5,892 nucleotides of DNA from an uncultured Chthoniobacterales bacterium. GTDB taxonomy: Bacteria; Verrucomicrobiota; Verrucomicrobiae; Chthoniobacterales; UBA10450. The notes below the pieces were generated by a model, which was given only the letters and a program-made list of their open reading frames with translations, did not search any database and was not told the DNA's origin. Made by a program: the position numbers and the translations under genes. Position 1 is the stretch's first letter. Every line of letters begins with the position of its first letter. The DNA is taken from NCBI GenBank assembly GCA_955652855.1, contig CATPCN010000657.1, positions 1-5,892 of the forward strand, written 5' to 3'. This document shows positions 1-5,594 of this stretch, piece by piece.

Positions 1-639
1 ATATTGATGCGCGAACGGGCGCTCTAACAATTCGCCGCGCCGCCGCAATAAACTCTTGCCGCGCTCGCCTTCCACCCGCCGCTTGTTAGCGTACACCGCC
101 GCTTGCTGCTCCGCTTTGCCGTCCCACTTGCGCCGGGGTCGTTGAGGAATCGAAACGTAAGTCCGAACACTCTTGCTCATCTCCACCAAACCCGCGCCGC
201 TGTGATAACCCTTGTCCGTCACCACTTCACACAACCCTTGTTCATACGTGAATACCGCCTGATGCGTCGCCTCATCGAATAATCGCCGCGTTCGCGAGAT
301 CGTGACGTGATCCGGGGTGGCTTCGGCCAGCCCGTAGTTCAGAAACCGGCGCAGGCTAAAACTGTCGGCCACGCGCCAAGCTATGCCGCGCTCGCTCGCG
401 ATCCCCTCAAAGAAGCCGATCAGCAGCAACCGGAAATAAACGCCCGGTGCCAGCGACGGCCGTCCCAGTCTCGTGTGATAGTACTCCCGGCAGCGCTCTT
501 CGCAAAACGCGTCAAACCCGGCTTGGTTCAGCACTCGGTTCAACTGCTCGTAAAAGGGATGCCCCGGTGTTTCTGTTCGCTCGCTCGCATAAAACAATTC
601 TTCCTGTTTCTGCCCCGCTTGCTTCGTGCCCATCGCCAT
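1..639 (-). CDS. IS1182-family (IS5-like DDE) transposase, internally deleted and running off the left edge
   Basis: The 213 visible codons read without a stop from ATG at 639; a second in-frame ATG (633) may be the real start, since related proteins begin MGTK. Residues 1-130 match the N-terminal DUF772-type region: TPGHPFYEQLN, GRPSLAPGVYFRLLLIGFFEG, RGIAWRVADS and TPDHVTISRTRRL. Residues 136-213 match the C-terminal part of the DDE domain: VVTDKGYHSG (second catalytic Asp, D142) and ELLERPFAH (catalytic Glu, E206). The segment expected between them, with the first catalytic Asp (GIDATT-like) and a Lys-rich stretch, is absent. From memory of the family, about 150-180 residues are missing. 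The join lies near residues 130-136 (about 235-250) and keeps the frame. The protein should be unable to transpose its own element, although its N-terminal DNA-binding part could survive. The C-terminus lies outside the window. Confidence 0.85.
   Translation of the reverse strand, partial: MAMGTKQAGQKQEELFYASERTETPGHPFYEQLNRVLNQAGFDAFCEERCREYYHTRLGRPSLAPGVYFRLLLIGFFEGIASERGIAWRVADSFSLRRFLNYGLAEATPDHVTISRTRRLFDEATHQAVFTYEQGLCEVVTDKGYHSGAGLVEMSKSVRTYVSIPQRPRRKWDGKAEQQAAVYANKRRVEGERGKSLLRRRGELLERPFAHQY
207..241. repeat. 9-bp direct repeat beside the transposase deletion join
   Basis: AACCCTTGT occurs at 207-215 and again at 233-241. The second copy sits at the point where the N-terminal and C-terminal parts of the transposase are joined. 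The first encodes the DKG residues of the conserved DKGYHS motif. Short direct repeats are common endpoints of slippage deletions, so this may record how the internal deletion arose, but only an intact copy of the element could show it. Confidence 0.4.
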
Positions 640-786
640 GCCTGATTTTACGCCCAAACAATCCAATAGGGAAGTGTTTTTAGACACGGGCTGTTAGCCA
701 CCTTCGTCTGGTGCAAGCGGCAGATCACGATTGCACAAGAACGCTGTTCGGTAGCTGAGCAACGTCAACAATATGCAGAGGAACGC

Positions 787-1349: not shown

Positions 1350-2114
1350 TTAGTAAACATCGCGTTTGCGCTTTGCCCGGGCTTCCGCGCACAGTCTTCG
1401 CTGCATTTCTATCTCGTCTCGCATCTGAGCGCAATTGGACTGGGCGAGTTCGAGAAGTTCGTCGGATCTGGGTGTGAGCACATACGTGGACGTTTCGCGG
1501 ATCGGTGCGGAGCCGGGTGTGCGCGGACCGGCCACTATTGTCAGCCAGCCGATGTCCTGAAGCTCGCGCAGGGCGGCACTGATCGCGTTCGGCGATGAAA
1601 GGCCGCTGTACCGTCCGAGCGCCAAGTAACTGATTTTGATTCTTAGAGTTTGATTCTTCGGATCGCGTTCAGCAAGCTCCAGCAGTACGGGCACCAGTGC
1701 GCAAGCAGTAGGCGCCAGCCGGGACCATAGCCCTGAATGCACCAGTAGACCGATCTCGCTCTCGCGTCCGAACTGCAAAATCCGACGCTCTGGCTGCTGC
1801 AGGTTCGTCCCCGCGGGCAAATCGGGAACCTGGAAGCGCTCCGCGATCCAGCGCGCCGCCTCGCCCGGATTCGTCAGACCGAGAACTGACATCACGAAGT
1901 CGACCGGTCCGAGCGGACCTGCATCGCAGCCGAAGCACTTTACGGTGTTGTTGATCTTGCGAATCCCAACGGACGCCGTGCGGTCGCCGTTTTCATGTAG
2001 GTCTGGACGCCAGCAATGGATCATCCTGTTTGAGCCAAACCTCAGATCGAGGGCGCGTGCGACTTCACCGATCGAGATCTTCCGATTGATGAATTTCAGG
2101 TCAGGAACGCCCAT
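1350..2114 (-). CDS. CHC2 (DnaG-type) zinc-finger and winged-helix replication protein
   Basis: This 254-residue protein has the zinc-binding signature of bacterial primases in residues 33-75: C34, H40, C60 and C63, with KCFGCDAGPLGPVDFVM giving the CFGC..G...DFVM pattern. In DnaG this domain reads template DNA. No TOPRIM or other catalytic primase domain follows. Instead residues about 129-200 (GLWSRLAPTACALVPVLLEL, then KISYLALGRYSGLSSPNAI and ALRELQDIGWLTI) look like a winged-helix DNA-binding domain. The tail (205-254) is charged and Arg/Lys-rich. The ATG lies 4 nt beyond the stop of the upstream initiator-like gene, so translation is probably coupled. I infer a role in recognising or priming the element's own origin together with that protein. 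Short CHC2 proteins without catalysis could equally be regulators. The domain call is firm and the biochemical role is open. Confidence 0.85.
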   Translation of the reverse strand: MGVPDLKFINRKISIGEVARALDLRFGSNRMIHCWRPDLHENGDRTASVGIRKINNTVKCFGCDAGPLGPVDFVMSVLGLTNPGEAARWIAERFQVPDLPAGTNLQQPERRILQFGRESEIGLLVHSGLWSRLAPTACALVPVLLELAERDPKNQTLRIKISYLALGRYSGLSSPNAISAALRELQDIGWLTIVAGPRTPGSAPIRETSTYVLTPRSDELLELAQSNCAQMRDEIEMQRRLCAEARAKRKRDVY

Positions 2115-2118
2115 GAAA

Positions 2119-3210
2119 CTACGGATCGCGGCGCTTCCGCCGTTCCTGTTCCCGCTGATTCAAGTCCTCAAGTTTCGCTCGCCACTCGTCGGTTGCACAT
2201 TCACACGCGACCAAAAGATCACCATCGATGCGGGTGCCCTTACCTTTGACTTCCCGGCATATCGGACACTTTTCAGCGACAACAGTGGTTTCTGGAGGAT
2301 GTTGGTCTGCCTGGGTCACCGCCGGCCGATTCATCGCAGCATAGGCTTTGAGCTTGGACTTGACCATCCCGAGCGGATTTCTAGTCTTGGGATTCTGCAG
2401 GTGGGGCCGCACGAACGCCACAAAGTCAATTAGATCGATACCGCGAAGTTCCACGTGCTCGCTGATATAGCGCCATTCGTGCTCGCTCAGAAACCCGCCA
2501 CGTTGCTCGACTAGGTACGCAAGCTCCGCCTTCGGACCATCAAAGCTGGGGGCAGCGGTTTTTTCATCATCATCAGAAACAAAAGAAACTCTGTTCGACT
2601 GCTGAGATCGACCTCGTTCGGTCGGCTGGTCTACAACTGGTGAACGTTTATCGTGCGCCCAAGACTTTCCTGTGATCTCTTTCTCCTCTGATGATGATTT
2701 CCCTCTGTTGTAGGGCGGCACGTGGCCAAGGGACTTGGCCGTTACGTAGCTAAGGGGGTTGGCCACTAGGTGGCCAAGGGGAGCCGACATCCTCCTTGCG
2801 AATTCCGCTTGAAGGGCGGGCCAGTTGATTTCATATTCCGTCGACTCATTACCGTGCTCCGCCTGATATCGAGCCTCGCCTGGAAGCGCTCGACGGCGAA
2901 TCAGAATTCCACCCTCCGAGAGGGCCGTGTTCGCCTTCTTAATCGCCGATAAGCTCAGCCCTGCACCACCTCGAATCCACTGGTTCTGCTTGTAACTGAA
3001 GATGCCGTTTGTAATTTGGTCTAAGCTCGCACAGTCAACAGCTTTTCCATACGCCAGAGTGCGCTCGGCATAGAAGAGTAGCAAAAGGAATTGGGCGTGG
3101 CTAAATCGAGAGGGCCCCCAGCGGATCAATTCGGTTAACGCTTCAATGCGGGTCTTGAATCCGGACGGCGTGTACACCTCATTGCGACGTCCATCTGATC
3201 GCTCTGGCAC
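2119..3210 (-). CDS. Phage O-like / plasmid-type replication initiator with C-terminal zinc motif
   Basis: The protein has 363 residues and a GTG start, with GAGGG just upstream overlapping the sigma-gene stop. Residues about 33-107 form a winged-helix region of the phage replication O or DnaD-N type: FSHAQFLLLLFYAERTL, SLDQITNGIFS, LSLSAIKKANTALSEGGILI. A linker follows with three 8-residue repeats (PLGHLVAN, PLSYVTAK, SLGHVPPY; 144-167) and a polar, Ser/Asp-rich stretch to about 220. Residues about 226-290 are helical (AELAYLVEQRGGFLSEHEW and following). The end has a possible zinc site, C315-x2-C318 and C336-x-C338, before a Lys/Arg/Glu tail. The modular plan of N-terminal DNA binder, linker and C-terminal partner domain is that of lambda O. 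The 8-residue repeats are encoded by tandem DNA repeats that look like iterons, which supports an initiator. Exact family membership was not tested; a transcription regulator is the main alternative. Confidence 0.75.
   Translation of the reverse strand: MPERSDGRRNEVYTPSGFKTRIEALTELIRWGPSRFSHAQFLLLLFYAERTLAYGKAVDCASLDQITNGIFSYKQNQWIRGGAGLSLSAIKKANTALSEGGILIRRRALPGEARYQAEHGNESTEYEINWPALQAEFARRMSAPLGHLVANPLSYVTAKSLGHVPPYNRGKSSSEEKEITGKSWAHDKRSPVVDQPTERGRSQQSNRVSFVSDDDEKTAAPSFDGPKAELAYLVEQRGGFLSEHEWRYISEHVELRGIDLIDFVAFVRPHLQNPKTRNPLGMVKSKLKAYAAMNRPAVTQADQHPPETTVVAEKCPICREVKGKGTRIDGDLLVACECATDEWRAKLEDLNQREQERRKRRDP
2559..2592. other. AT-rich tract, candidate duplex-unwinding element
   Basis: This 34-bp stretch has only about 8 G or C bases, against a background in the mid fifties percent. 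It has a run of six T, a CAT repeat and a purine-rich A tract. It lies inside the initiator gene, 3' of the iteron-like array in gene direction, matching the order iterons then AT-rich region in the lambda origin. The distance from the array, about 120-150 bp, is longer than in lambda. It could simply reflect a Ser/Asp/Lys-coding linker. Confidence 0.4.
2710..2791. repeat. Three tandem 24-bp iteron-like repeats with dyad symmetry inside the initiator gene
   Basis: GGCCAA recurs at 2724 and 2772, with a degenerate AGCTAA at 2748, exactly 24 bp apart. The inverted half-site TTGGCC recurs at 2735 and 2759, also 24 bp apart. Together they make an alternating array of five half-sites. GGCCAAG-GGA-CTTGGCC (2724-2740) is a perfect 7-3-7 dyad and TTGGCCAC-TAG-GTGGCCAA (2759-2777) a perfect 8-3-8 dyad. 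The period is a multiple of three, so the array is read as 8-residue repeats in the protein. Dyad-bearing iterons in mid-gene are how phage lambda builds its origin inside gene O. A simple protein repeat is the alternative. Confidence 0.75.
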
Positions 3211-3216
3211 ATACCC

Positions 3217-3840
3217 TCAAGCGATCCGACCCTGCCCGCCTGCACGAGGGCCCGGCCTTATGCAGTTGCTCCGCCGATGGATTGGCAACGCCGTTCCGGA
3301 AGACGAAATGCCGGCCTCGATGAACGCGATCCTCAACCGTGCGATGGCACGATAAACAGCCGCCCGGCTAACATTCAGCTGTCGGCTGGTCTCGACCGCG
3401 GAGTACTCAGCCAGATGCAGAGCCACGGCCCTGTCGAACGTTGATAACCTACGGAGAATCCGTCTGATGTCCGTTCTGAGATCGACGTGATCGCCGGTTG
3501 TCCCGATCTCCAACACGCCTTGAAGTGATTTCCGTCCGAAACGCCGGGTCCGGCGTGAGCGCGCACTCCGTACCAGTGACGTGATCCTGTTGGCTACAAC
3601 CCGTTCCACGAAGGTGCGAAGGGAAGCTCGTGCTGGGTCGAAGCGTGGGAGTGCGGTCCAAACGCCGATGAGCGCCTCTTGCACCAAGTCTTCGCGATCC
3701 CACAAGATCCCGCACCAGTGTGTCGCCCAACTTGCCGTTACCTGTCCCGCGCGACGAGCCAGGGAATATGCTTCCAGAAAGCGGTCCTGATTCGTTGAAA
3801 TATTCAATTGCTCTTCGCGACCTGAAGCTTCTTGATTCAT
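3217..3840 (-). CDS. Sigma-70 family RNA polymerase sigma factor (ECF-like)
   Basis: The 207-residue protein has the two-domain plan of ECF-type sigma factors. Region 2 spans about residues 20-95: DREDLVQEALIGVWTALPRF is the core-binding and -10-recognition helix with the usual DLVQEA pattern, followed by SLRTFVERVVANRI and an Arg-rich stretch (RSARSRRTRR). Region 4 spans about 125-177, with a helix-turn-helix in SRQLNVSRAAVYRAIARLR that would read the -35 element. The last 30 residues are unrelated and basic. The ATG at 3840 has a strong purine-rich ribosome site (AGAGGGGGAAGG) directly before it. It is the first gene of the operon, and its stop lies 6 nt before the GTG of the initiator-like gene. 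No anti-sigma gene is adjacent. It may direct transcription of the element's own genes, but its target promoters cannot be named from this window. Confidence 0.85.
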   Translation of the reverse strand: MNQEASGREEQLNISTNQDRFLEAYSLARRAGQVTASWATHWCGILWDREDLVQEALIGVWTALPRFDPARASLRTFVERVVANRITSLVRSARSRRTRRFGRKSLQGVLEIGTTGDHVDLRTDIRRILRRLSTFDRAVALHLAEYSAVETSRQLNVSRAAVYRAIARLRIAFIEAGISSSGTALPIHRRSNCIRPGPRAGGQGRIA

Positions 3841-3907: not shown

Positions 3908-4020
3908 GGACGAAGCACCATGAGTTCGCCCAGATAGCTGACGCCACAAACAAGGACTTCCGCTTTGCGGCCAGTCTTTGTCGAGTGTTTCTATCACCAA
4001 TGCACCGGCGGCAAGATCAT
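3886..4020 (-). pseudogene. Possible decayed small gene coupled to the 108-residue gene
   Basis: An ATG at 4020 overlaps the TGA of the upstream gene as ATGA, the normal arrangement of a coupled partner, but the frame (MILPPVHW) hits two adjacent stops, TGA TAG, at 3996-3991. Beyond them the same frame stays open to a TAG at 3886-3888 and reads protein-like sequence ending GVSYLGELMVLRPLD plus five residues. It has no good new start codon. A different frame also looks protein-like before the stops (ALVIETLDKDWPQSG), so a frameshift is an alternative to nonsense mutation. I do not recognise a family, and chance is possible over so short a stretch. Confidence 0.3.
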
Positions 4021-4343
4021 GCCGGATGCTGAACCAGCAGCCTGAAAGGTAAGCCGTGCTTGATTTCGAGGGTTTCAATACTGCCGTTCCCGAGTAACGC
4101 GAAAAGATCGAAAAGCTCGACGATCTGACTCTTCAGTGCAAAATCCGAGTGCTCCGATTCCGGCCGTGGTCCATTGTCGGCACCGAGTTTGATGTCTCGA
4201 ATAATTCTCGGGCCCGGGTGTAAAACTGGTTCGCCATCGAGGACAGTTAGACCCTCGATTCGACCGAAATTGAGTTCCTGCATCATCTCCACTAGACGCT
4301 TTCGCGCCGGGGATAAAGCTGACTTCGTCAGAGCGTGAGTCAT
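4017..4343 (-). CDS. Conserved-looking hypothetical protein, 108 residues
   Basis: I chose the ATG at 4343 and not the longer frame up to 4478, because GGAGGA lies 4 nt upstream and the extension has low-quality sequence. The protein reads as a compact single domain: a helical N-terminus (PARKRLVEMMQELNFGRIEG), a segment LTVLDGEPVLHPGPRIIRDI, then KLGADNGPRPE and a helix (LKSQIVELFDLFALLGNGS), ending in IETLEIKHGLPFRLLV. It resembles small uncharacterised proteins I recall from soil bacteria, in which GEPV, NGPRPE and KHGLPFR-like motifs recur, but I can name no function. There is no signal peptide, membrane segment or cysteine pair. The region between it and the sigma gene holds a decayed frame. 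It is transcribed divergently from the 361-residue gene. Confidence 0.75.
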   Translation of the reverse strand: MTHALTKSALSPARKRLVEMMQELNFGRIEGLTVLDGEPVLHPGPRIIRDIKLGADNGPRPESEHSDFALKSQIVELFDLFALLGNGSIETLEIKHGLPFRLLVQHPA

Positions 4344-4347
4344 AGGT

Positions 4348-4353
4348 TCCTCC
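4348..4353 (-). promoter_or_regulatory. Ribosome binding site deciding the start at 4343
   Basis: GGAGGA on the minus strand lies 4 nt before the ATG at 4343. No comparable site precedes the upstream in-frame alternative at 4478, so the shorter protein is preferred. Confidence 0.7.
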
Positions 4354-4508
4354 AGGTTTTGTGGGGAGTCGCCAGCGCGGAGGCAGAGTGGAAATGGTTG
4401 TCGAACGGTGTTGCGTTGCACGCGAGTCTCATCGCCGGTAAACGCCCTCTGTGCCGAAAGCAACTCGGCAGGTTTCAATCTTATGGCACGCTGTTAAAGG
4501 GACATAAA

Positions 4509-5594
4509 ATGAGCCGCCGCTTTCGCTCGAAATCTGAATTAAGAAGCCATGTTCAACGAATCCTCAAGTCGCCTATTCCGGACGAGGTGTGGCGCTACGC
4601 CGACGACGAAAACATGGTAAGCGAAGTTCTGCAGGGAGAAAACACAACAGAATGGATCGCAGAAAAGCTGCGGAGATTGATTAACCTTGGACAACCACAA
4701 GTAGCAGAGAAATTTATAACGGCCGAGCGCAGACAGCGGCGCGGAAAGACATCCTACAACCGCCAGGAGGCGATTTCTGAAGCGCTCGCCGCGATTGCGC
4801 GTCAAAGCGAGGAGGTGCGGTCGTTCCGCCGTAAGTTTCTTAATGACCAACTCATACAGTTTGAAGAAGTTGAACGATGGATCAAAGAGAGAACGCGACA
4901 GGACGAGACCTACCCTCACGCCCTGCTCGTACGACTCAAGCACGGCTTCACATTGGACTATTGCGACGGCTGGCAACTTGATCCGCCCATTTCCTCAGTT
5001 GGAAGCGATGAGATAGAAGGCCTGGCACCGGTCGATTGTGTGGAATACGGAAGGCCGGGGAGCACATGGGTGCATCGCATTCCCATCGGGCGCGATGGCA
5101 CGCTCAGATTCGTCTTTCAACTAACCATGGGCCTGGTAAATAGGTTCTGTTGGCAAGGGGCCCAAGCAACAGTATTCTTGCTCACCGACACGACACCCCT
5201 GGTGGCAATCGAAAGCGTCGAGCTTCGTAGACCGCCCGCGACAATATTACCGTGGGGAGGAGGATTGTTGGCCCTAGCCTGCCTCTCGCGCATCACACTC
5301 ACGATCGACCCTATGATGACACCTCGGGAGGTAGGAGAGAGATATGCCAAGCTCCGAGGAACTTTGATCGCTAGGAAGCCCCGAACCCAGAGTGAGAAGC
5401 ACCTGCAGCTTGCAGTTTTTGCGGTCGAACGCGCAGTTCTGGACAAAGAGGCCATGAGCGAATGGGGGCGGAAGTTCCCAGACTGGAAGTATGGTCGCGT
5501 GTCAATATTTGCGCGGGATGCGCGAGCGGCACGAGAAAGACTACTCCACAATCATCCAGTTGACCTTTTGAGGAAGCCGTTGAATCGAGCTTGA
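4509..5594 (+). CDS. Uncharacterised 361-residue protein of the element
   Basis: I do not recognise a named family. The ATG at 4509 is preferred because AAAGGGA lies 6 nt upstream; the frame is open back to 4335, but that part overlaps the divergent gene and reads poorly. Residues 1-150 are charged and helical (MSRRFRSKSELRSHVQRIL, then EWIAEKLRRLINLG, AEKFITAERRQRRGK, EEVERWIKERTRQ), suggesting a nucleic-acid-binding or coiled region. Residues about 155-285 look like a globular alpha/beta domain (GWQLDPPISSVGSDEIEGL, IPIGRDGTLRFVFQLTMGL, WQGAQATVFLLTDTTPLV, ITLTIDPMMTPREVGERYAKLR). The order of a VFLLTDTTPLV strand followed by IDP..TPREV..RYAKLR recurs in hypothetical proteins I have seen near mobile elements. 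The tail (about 295-361) is again helical and basic. There is no signal peptide or membrane helix. Several AGA and AGG codons suggest slightly different codon use. Confidence 0.75.
   Translation: MSRRFRSKSELRSHVQRILKSPIPDEVWRYADDENMVSEVLQGENTTEWIAEKLRRLINLGQPQVAEKFITAERRQRRGKTSYNRQEAISEALAAIARQSEEVRSFRRKFLNDQLIQFEEVERWIKERTRQDETYPHALLVRLKHGFTLDYCDGWQLDPPISSVGSDEIEGLAPVDCVEYGRPGSTWVHRIPIGRDGTLRFVFQLTMGLVNRFCWQGAQATVFLLTDTTPLVAIESVELRRPPATILPWGGGLLALACLSRITLTIDPMMTPREVGERYAKLRGTLIARKPRTQSEKHLQLAVFAVERAVLDKEAMSEWGRKFPDWKYGRVSIFARDARAARERLLHNHPVDLLRKPLNRA

What the first reader, a model, noticed from the sequence alone, without database searches (positions are those of the whole stretch)
2710..2791. 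Iteron-like array inside a replication initiator gene: a probable lambda-style origin
Three 24-bp units give half-sites GGCCAA (2724, 2772; degenerate at 2748) and TTGGCC (2735, 2759) in strict 24-bp register, with perfect 7-3-7 and 8-3-8 dyads. They lie at codons 144-167 of an O-like initiator, between its N-terminal winged helix and its C-terminal part. In phage lambda the origin is four dyad-bearing iterons within gene O at the same relative place. The element would thus carry a self-contained initiator plus origin, which is unusual for a gene set next to a sigma factor and a CHC2 protein.
Basis: partly seen in the sequence, partly recalled or inferred. Interest (0 to 1): 0.75.

Follow-up and report, generated by a model that had tools for sequence, protein, structure and literature searches.

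The report
Replication origin inside its initiator gene
A gene from an uncultured, probably viral, genetic element appears to carry, inside its own coding sequence, the DNA start site to which its protein binds to begin copying the genome: the same trick that phage lambda uses, but in a protein family with no clear kinship to lambda's.

Summary
The array is real and the stated coordinates are right. With the peptide held fixed, 0 of 20,000 random codings reach its dyad total, its 24-bp repetition or its half-site count. In a scan of 1,765 segments from 18 genes, only the phage lambda origin and this array reach the floor. It encodes a predicted disordered linker between a winged helix and a helical C-terminal part, at the same relative place as ori-lambda. 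An A-rich, strand-asymmetric stretch follows, as in lambda. The 12 relatives that span the region in frame keep the 8-residue register. In a 13th, P0013, the array is read in another frame. Reading both frames fixes 33 bases of its DNA, and these keep the half-sites beyond what the peptide requires. So selection seems to act on the DNA. Best reading: a lambda-type intragenic origin bound by its own initiator, in a phage-like early region with a small conserved protein, a sigma factor and a CHC2 zinc-finger protein. It works like lambda O/ori, but membership in the O family is not shown: a new variant of a known kind. Binding and replication are inferred.

The parts
2119..3210 (-). Initiator ORF, 363 aa: predicted winged helix (about residues 13-142), disordered linker (146-219), helical domain (226-293), C-terminal zinc-ribbon-like CPIC...CEC part (motif read by eye)
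   Evidence: ORF; AlphaFold2 model and C-terminal model; 15 relatives found
2716..2784 (-). Iteron array, period 24 bp, encoding codons 143-165; half-sites CTTGGYC / GRCCAAG
2759..2777 (.). Perfect dyad, arms 8, spacer 3 (the spacer is a codon that is among the most variable of the array in relatives)
2724..2740 (.). Perfect dyad, arms 7, spacer 3 (the spacer is the Pro/Ser codon)
2665..2706 (-). Purine-rich, A-rich coding-strand stretch directly after the array; candidate strand-opening element; encodes the conserved NRGKSSSEE peptide
   Evidence: 40-mers starting at 2704-2706 are the most purine-rich of the gene (0.78) and equal the highest value among 2,771 operon 40-mers; the first 45 nt after the array are 47% A, 11% T, 42% GC
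2559..2600 (.). Lowest-GC 40-mers of the initiator gene; alternative candidate for the opening element
   Evidence: GC 0.30-0.325
1350..2114 (-). CHC2 zinc-finger protein, 254 aa, weak DnaG zinc-ribbon match followed by a weak Crp-like winged-helix match; no primase catalytic domain matched; possible helicase/primase recruiter (inference)
   Evidence: Pfam and NCBIfam matches below curated cut-offs; 182 hits, one of them the window's own
3217..3840 (-). Sigma-70 family factor, ending 6 bases before the initiator start
   Evidence: relatives in IMG/VR contigs
4017..4343 (-). Small conserved protein upstream of sigma, no confident family match
   Evidence: best E 0.05; about 50-61% identical relatives in 12 of 13 distinct IMG/VR contigs

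Best explanation
The array is the origin of replication of a phage or prophage-like element, placed inside the gene of the protein that binds it, as in phage lambda. Dimers of the initiator's winged helix would bind the palindromic 24-bp-spaced sites, wrap or bend the DNA, and open the neighbouring A-rich stretch. The C-terminal part, helped perhaps by the CHC2 protein encoded next, would then bring in the host helicase and primase. Shown here: the dyad array, its excess over what the peptide needs, its fixed place in the family, partial DNA conservation in one relative, and the lambda-like layout. Inferred: binding by this protein, strand opening, helicase recruitment, and that the element replicates from here.
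For: Codon-randomisation excess (0 of 20,000 for three measures). Top of a 1,765-segment scan together with the lambda ori (p floor 1/401; segments scoring under 12 were not simulated). Array in the disordered linker, codons 143-165 of 363, against lambda iterons at codons 117-145 of 299. In the 12 rows of A1 the array peptide (residues 143-168) is gap-free and conserved (majority fraction 0.71, occupancy 1.0), against 0.47 and 0.82 for the rest of the linker (176-220). 33 bases of P0013 deduced from two frames, 0 of 40,000 random peptides compatible; their dyad matches, 14 of 18, are reached by 44 of 50,000 random codings, and their identity to the window, 25 of 33, by 9 of 50,000 (with the window's codon usage). 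A-rich stretch after the array as in lambda. 8 of 8 O genes show such an array. Phage setting: terminase, portal and head genes on a contig with the same small-protein-plus-sigma pair.
Against: No binding or replication data. Full homologous DNA could not be fetched (searches found none), so DNA conservation rests on one relative, and its 24-lag repetition alone is weak (810 of 50,000). Across 13 peptides paired dyad columns do not covary beyond column shuffles (3,044 and 4,376 of 5,000 shuffles reach the observed sums). The stretch directly after the array is only moderately A+T-rich (42% GC), and the gene's lowest-GC 40-mers lie about 115 bases further on. The middle unit is degenerate.
Confidence: 0.8

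Rival explanations
1. The array is an intragenic operator: the initiator or another phage regulator binds it to control transcription of the early operon, not to start replication.
For: Dyads 24 bp apart would suit a dimeric regulator; a sigma factor and winged-helix proteins lie in the same operon.
Against: Position far inside a coding sequence, the A-rich stretch next to it, and the same order of parts in lambda and other O genes fit an origin better. The two roles can coexist.
Confidence: 0.1
2. The 8-residue repeat is selected as a peptide (a flexible KPLG-type linker), and the DNA pattern is a by-product or a relic of tandem duplication.
For: The 12 relatives spanning the region in frame keep variants of L-G-[HR]-x-[VA]-T-K-P repeats; no covariation beyond column shuffles.
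Against: Fixed peptide with random codons does not give the dyads (0 of 20,000). Duplication explains repeats but not inverted symmetry. In P0013 the peptide is in another frame while the DNA half-sites persist.
Confidence: 0.06
3. A site for an unrelated protein (partition, recombination or a host factor), or a small palindromic insertion.
For: P0010 and P0013 are identical from the PNNRG residues to NPLGMI but differ before, which suggests recombination or a mixed assembly near the array.
Against: The array is at the same place between the same domains in all 13 aligned members, so it is no recent insertion; lambda-type layout.
Confidence: 0.04

Closest known systems
Phage lambda O protein and ori-lambda
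   Same: Dyad iterons inside the initiator gene at the same relative position, followed by an A-rich strand-asymmetric stretch (PMC5043065 section 8, read).
   Different: No significant sequence kinship shown; 2.6 G+C-rich units in strict 24-bp register, against four 18-bp annotated iterons at 20-24-bp spacing; zinc-ribbon-like C-terminus; next gene is a CHC2 protein, not P.
Other O-like initiators (phages SEN22, SE1 of the P22 group, HK544, Klebsiella phage 5, PhiR30_1, BUCT566, MPK9)
   Same: Each of the 7 fetched carries an excess dyad or repeat array at about codons 89-152, after the SEW-type end of the N-terminal part in the alignment. SE1 has one further segment (157-188) at the floor.
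   Different: The next gene is annotated as helicase, primase/helicase, AAA ATPase, P or 'DNA replication protein'; sequence not shown to be related to the window protein.
DnaD / DnaB (Geobacillus) primosome initiator domains
Iteron plasmid origins
   Same: Phased repeated initiator sites next to an opening element.
   Different: [quoted passage not shown] here the sites are dyads and intragenic. No plasmid record matched the initiator.

Membership tests
Lambda O family (Pfam PF04492 Phage_rep_O) | Match to the Pfam model | tested here: not met
   Window protein: 0 Pfam families at E<=1; 2 of 12 members of A1 reach Phage_rep_O, best E 0.16, weaker than a zinc-finger match (E 0.039, 2 of 12)
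Lambda O family (Pfam PF04492 Phage_rep_O) | Profile-profile kinship with O proteins | tested here: inconclusive
   hhalign A1 against 8 O proteins: probability 5.6%, E 0.0069 over 74 columns of the winged helix; unrelated control (sigma) E 0.52
Lambda O family (Pfam PF04492 Phage_rep_O) | N-terminal winged-helix DNA-binding domain | tested here: met
   [not shown]
Lambda-type intragenic origin | Dyad iterons within the initiator gene between N- and C-terminal domains | tested here: met
Lambda-type intragenic origin | Adjacent A+T-rich unwinding region | tested here: inconclusive
   A-rich, purine-asymmetric but 42% GC stretch adjacent; lowest-GC 40-mers about 115 bases further
Lambda-type intragenic origin | Initiator dimers bind the iterons | not testable with these tools
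   needs purified protein
Lambda-type intragenic origin | Helicase loader (P) or helicase encoded next | tested here: not met
   Next gene is a CHC2/winged-helix protein; no loader match, and only a weak PHROG match of its zinc-finger part to a 692-position helicase family (E 0.013, residues 28-66)
Replication early region of a tailed phage | Neighbours shared with contigs that carry virion genes | tested here: met
   Small-protein-plus-sigma pair in 11 of 13 distinct IMG/VR contigs fetched through these genes; L014 also encodes terminase, portal and major head protein. No virion gene was matched among the window ORFs scanned

The most novel reading that the evidence does not exclude
An initiator family unrelated by descent to lambda O has independently placed its origin inside its own gene, in phages of uncultured bacteria (perhaps Acidobacteriota). 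It would recruit the replisome through its zinc-ribbon C-terminus and a companion zinc-finger protein lacking a primase domain, a route different from lambda's O-P-DnaB.
Probability: 0.25. Interest if true: 0.65.

Novelty: new variant of a known kind. Interest (0 to 1): 0.45.

Why it matters
It extends the 'origin inside the initiator gene' design to a family that the Pfam, PHROGs and NCBIfam libraries do not recognise in the window protein. It also gives a way to find such origins from sequence: look for dyads in excess of what the peptide requires, located in the disordered linker of a winged-helix protein. If the initiator is not a descendant of O, the design has arisen more than once, which would make the advantage of coupling initiator and origin in one exchangeable cassette testable.

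Full report
What is there. On the minus strand the window holds four genes: a small conserved protein (4017-4343), a sigma-70 family factor (3217-3840), the 363-aa initiator (2119-3210) and a CHC2 zinc-finger protein (1350-2114). The last three are separated by 6 and 4 bases. The finding's array lies in the third. Its coordinates check, TRF calls a 24-bp array of 2.6 copies at 2720-2781, and the two perfect dyads are at 2724-2740 and 2759-2777.

Is it more than chance, and more than the peptide needs? Holding the peptide of codons 143-170 fixed and drawing codons from the operon's own usage, 0 of 20,000 draws reach the 24-lag identity, the dyad total or the half-site count; the longest dyad is reached in 54 and the top-four score in 5. 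A scan of 1,765 overlapping 28-codon segments from 18 genes (window, lambda, IMG/VR contigs) put only lambda O codons 109-136 and three overlapping segments of this array at the floor of 1/401; the two next lambda ori segments followed at 2/401, and the best other segment was at 4/401 (segments with a dyad score under 12 were not simulated). As positive controls, 8 O-type genes from named phages (lambda included) were tested: 7 show excess dyads and 8 show excess dyads or repeats at the floor of 1/301, at about codons 89-152 (only segments over a threshold were simulated; one further segment, codons 157-188 of SE1, also reached the floor).

Relatives. Two searches found 15 relatives of the initiator (the second scored only the 7,998 candidates sharing most words), from sources marked jgi, ena, lgn and, for one, ncbi. 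Twelve span the array in frame and keep variants of an 8-residue register of the type L-G-[HR]-x-[VA]-T-K-P without gaps. The x codons, which are the 3-nt spacers of one set of dyads, are among the most variable positions. Two others (P0014, P0015) lack the region, and P0013 is out of frame there. AlphaFold2 gives a winged helix, then pLDDT under 50 for residues 146-195 and 197-219, then a helical domain and a zinc-ribbon-like part. Within this disordered linker the array peptide is conserved and gap-free (0.71, occupancy 1.0, residues 143-168), while residues 176-220 are not (0.47, 0.82) (12 rows). Conserved sequence in a disordered stretch is what a DNA site under the code would produce, but peptide conservation alone cannot prove it, and a column-shuffle test for covariation of paired residues was negative.

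DNA of a relative. No homologous DNA could be fetched. One relative, P0013, gives a way round: where P0010 reads LGPQVAKPLGP, P0013 reads PWSPSGQAPWSP. These fit the same DNA in two frames: of the 13 in-frame members only P0010 fits, the solution is unique apart from its last base, and 0 of 40,000 random peptides fit. This DNA carries CTTGGTC, GGCCAAG and CTTGGTC in 24-bp register. Its dyad matches (14 of 18) are reached by 44 of 50,000 random codings, and its identity to the window (25 of 33) by 9 of 50,000; its 24-lag repetition alone is weaker, 810 of 50,000 (using the window's codon usage). So the DNA, not only the peptide, seems kept between proteins about 50% identical. The inference assumes that P0013's residues are a true reading of its contig; its frame differences could be natural or assembly errors.

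Layout compared with lambda. Lambda's annotated iterons occupy codons 117-145 of 299 of gene O; this array occupies codons 143-165 of 363. In lambda the next 45 bases are 58% A and 18% T; here they are 47% A and 11% T, and the 40-mers starting at 2706-2704 are the most purine-rich of the gene. The stretch is less A+T-rich than lambda's (42% against 24% GC) and the gene's lowest-GC 40-mers lie about 115 bases on, so which of the two would open is undecided. In 4 of 5 other O genes examined the lowest-GC 40-mer lies at or just after the array, at codons 128-156; in the fifth it lies at the gene's start. A review section read (PMC5043065) states that ori-lambda lies within O, that inverted repeats bind O dimers, and that a neighbouring 40-bp A+T-rich region opens.

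Setting. The small-protein-plus-sigma pair is present, side by side, in 11 of 13 distinct IMG/VR contigs reached through these two genes. In the three contigs whose downstream genes I scanned (L002, L007, L014) a primase-type replication gene follows, directly after sigma in L002 and L014, and L014 also encodes terminase, portal and head proteins. P0013 begins with a stretch resembling the end of the sigma factor (10 of 23 residues identical, E 3e-4), which suggests the same gene order in another element. The CHC2 protein has 182 hits (120 listed), among them one labelled Bryobacteraceae and three on contigs over 4.9 Mb, which hints at an Acidobacteriota host but does not show it. The window also has a partial transposase at 1-687.

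Mechanism and verdict. The best reading is a lambda-type intragenic origin: initiator dimers bind the dyads, the A-rich neighbour opens, and the C-terminal domain, perhaps with the CHC2 protein, recruits the host replisome. Only the sequence features are shown. By descent it cannot be filed in the O family: no Pfam match for the window protein, Phage_rep_O at E 0.16 in 2 of 12 members, and hhalign E 0.0069 at 5.6% probability over the winged helix, against E 0.52 for an unrelated control. It works like O/ori. The main rival is an operator role for the same sites.

Noticed in passing
window 4017-4343 (-) and 3217-3840 (-); L002, L005-L014: A small conserved protein without confident family match, followed by a sigma factor, forms a conserved pair in 11 of 13 distinct IMG/VR contigs fetched through it, upstream of differing replication genes; a possible marker and regulator of early regions in a group of phages.
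   Followed up: partly
window 1350-2114 (-): CHC2 zinc finger joined to a Crp-like winged helix, no primase domain matched; 182 hits including ones on Mb-sized contigs and a Bryobacteraceae MAG.
   Followed up: partly
P0010 and P0013: Two relatives are identical from the PNNRG residues just after the array to NPLGMI but clearly differ before it, as if recombination (or mixed assembly) had joined different N-terminal halves near the array.
   Followed up: partly
window 2566-2586 and 2678-2698: A 21-nt inverted repeat (17 of 21 paired, 91 nt apart) spans the linker beyond the array; 11 of 1,500 random codings reach it.
   Followed up: partly
window 1-687 (-): Partial IS5/IS1182-type transposase (DUF772) running off the window edge.
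   Followed up: no
window 4335-5594 (+): 419-aa ORF on the opposite strand, overlapping the start of the small gene, with no family match in Pfam above chance, PHROGs or NCBIfam.
   Followed up: no
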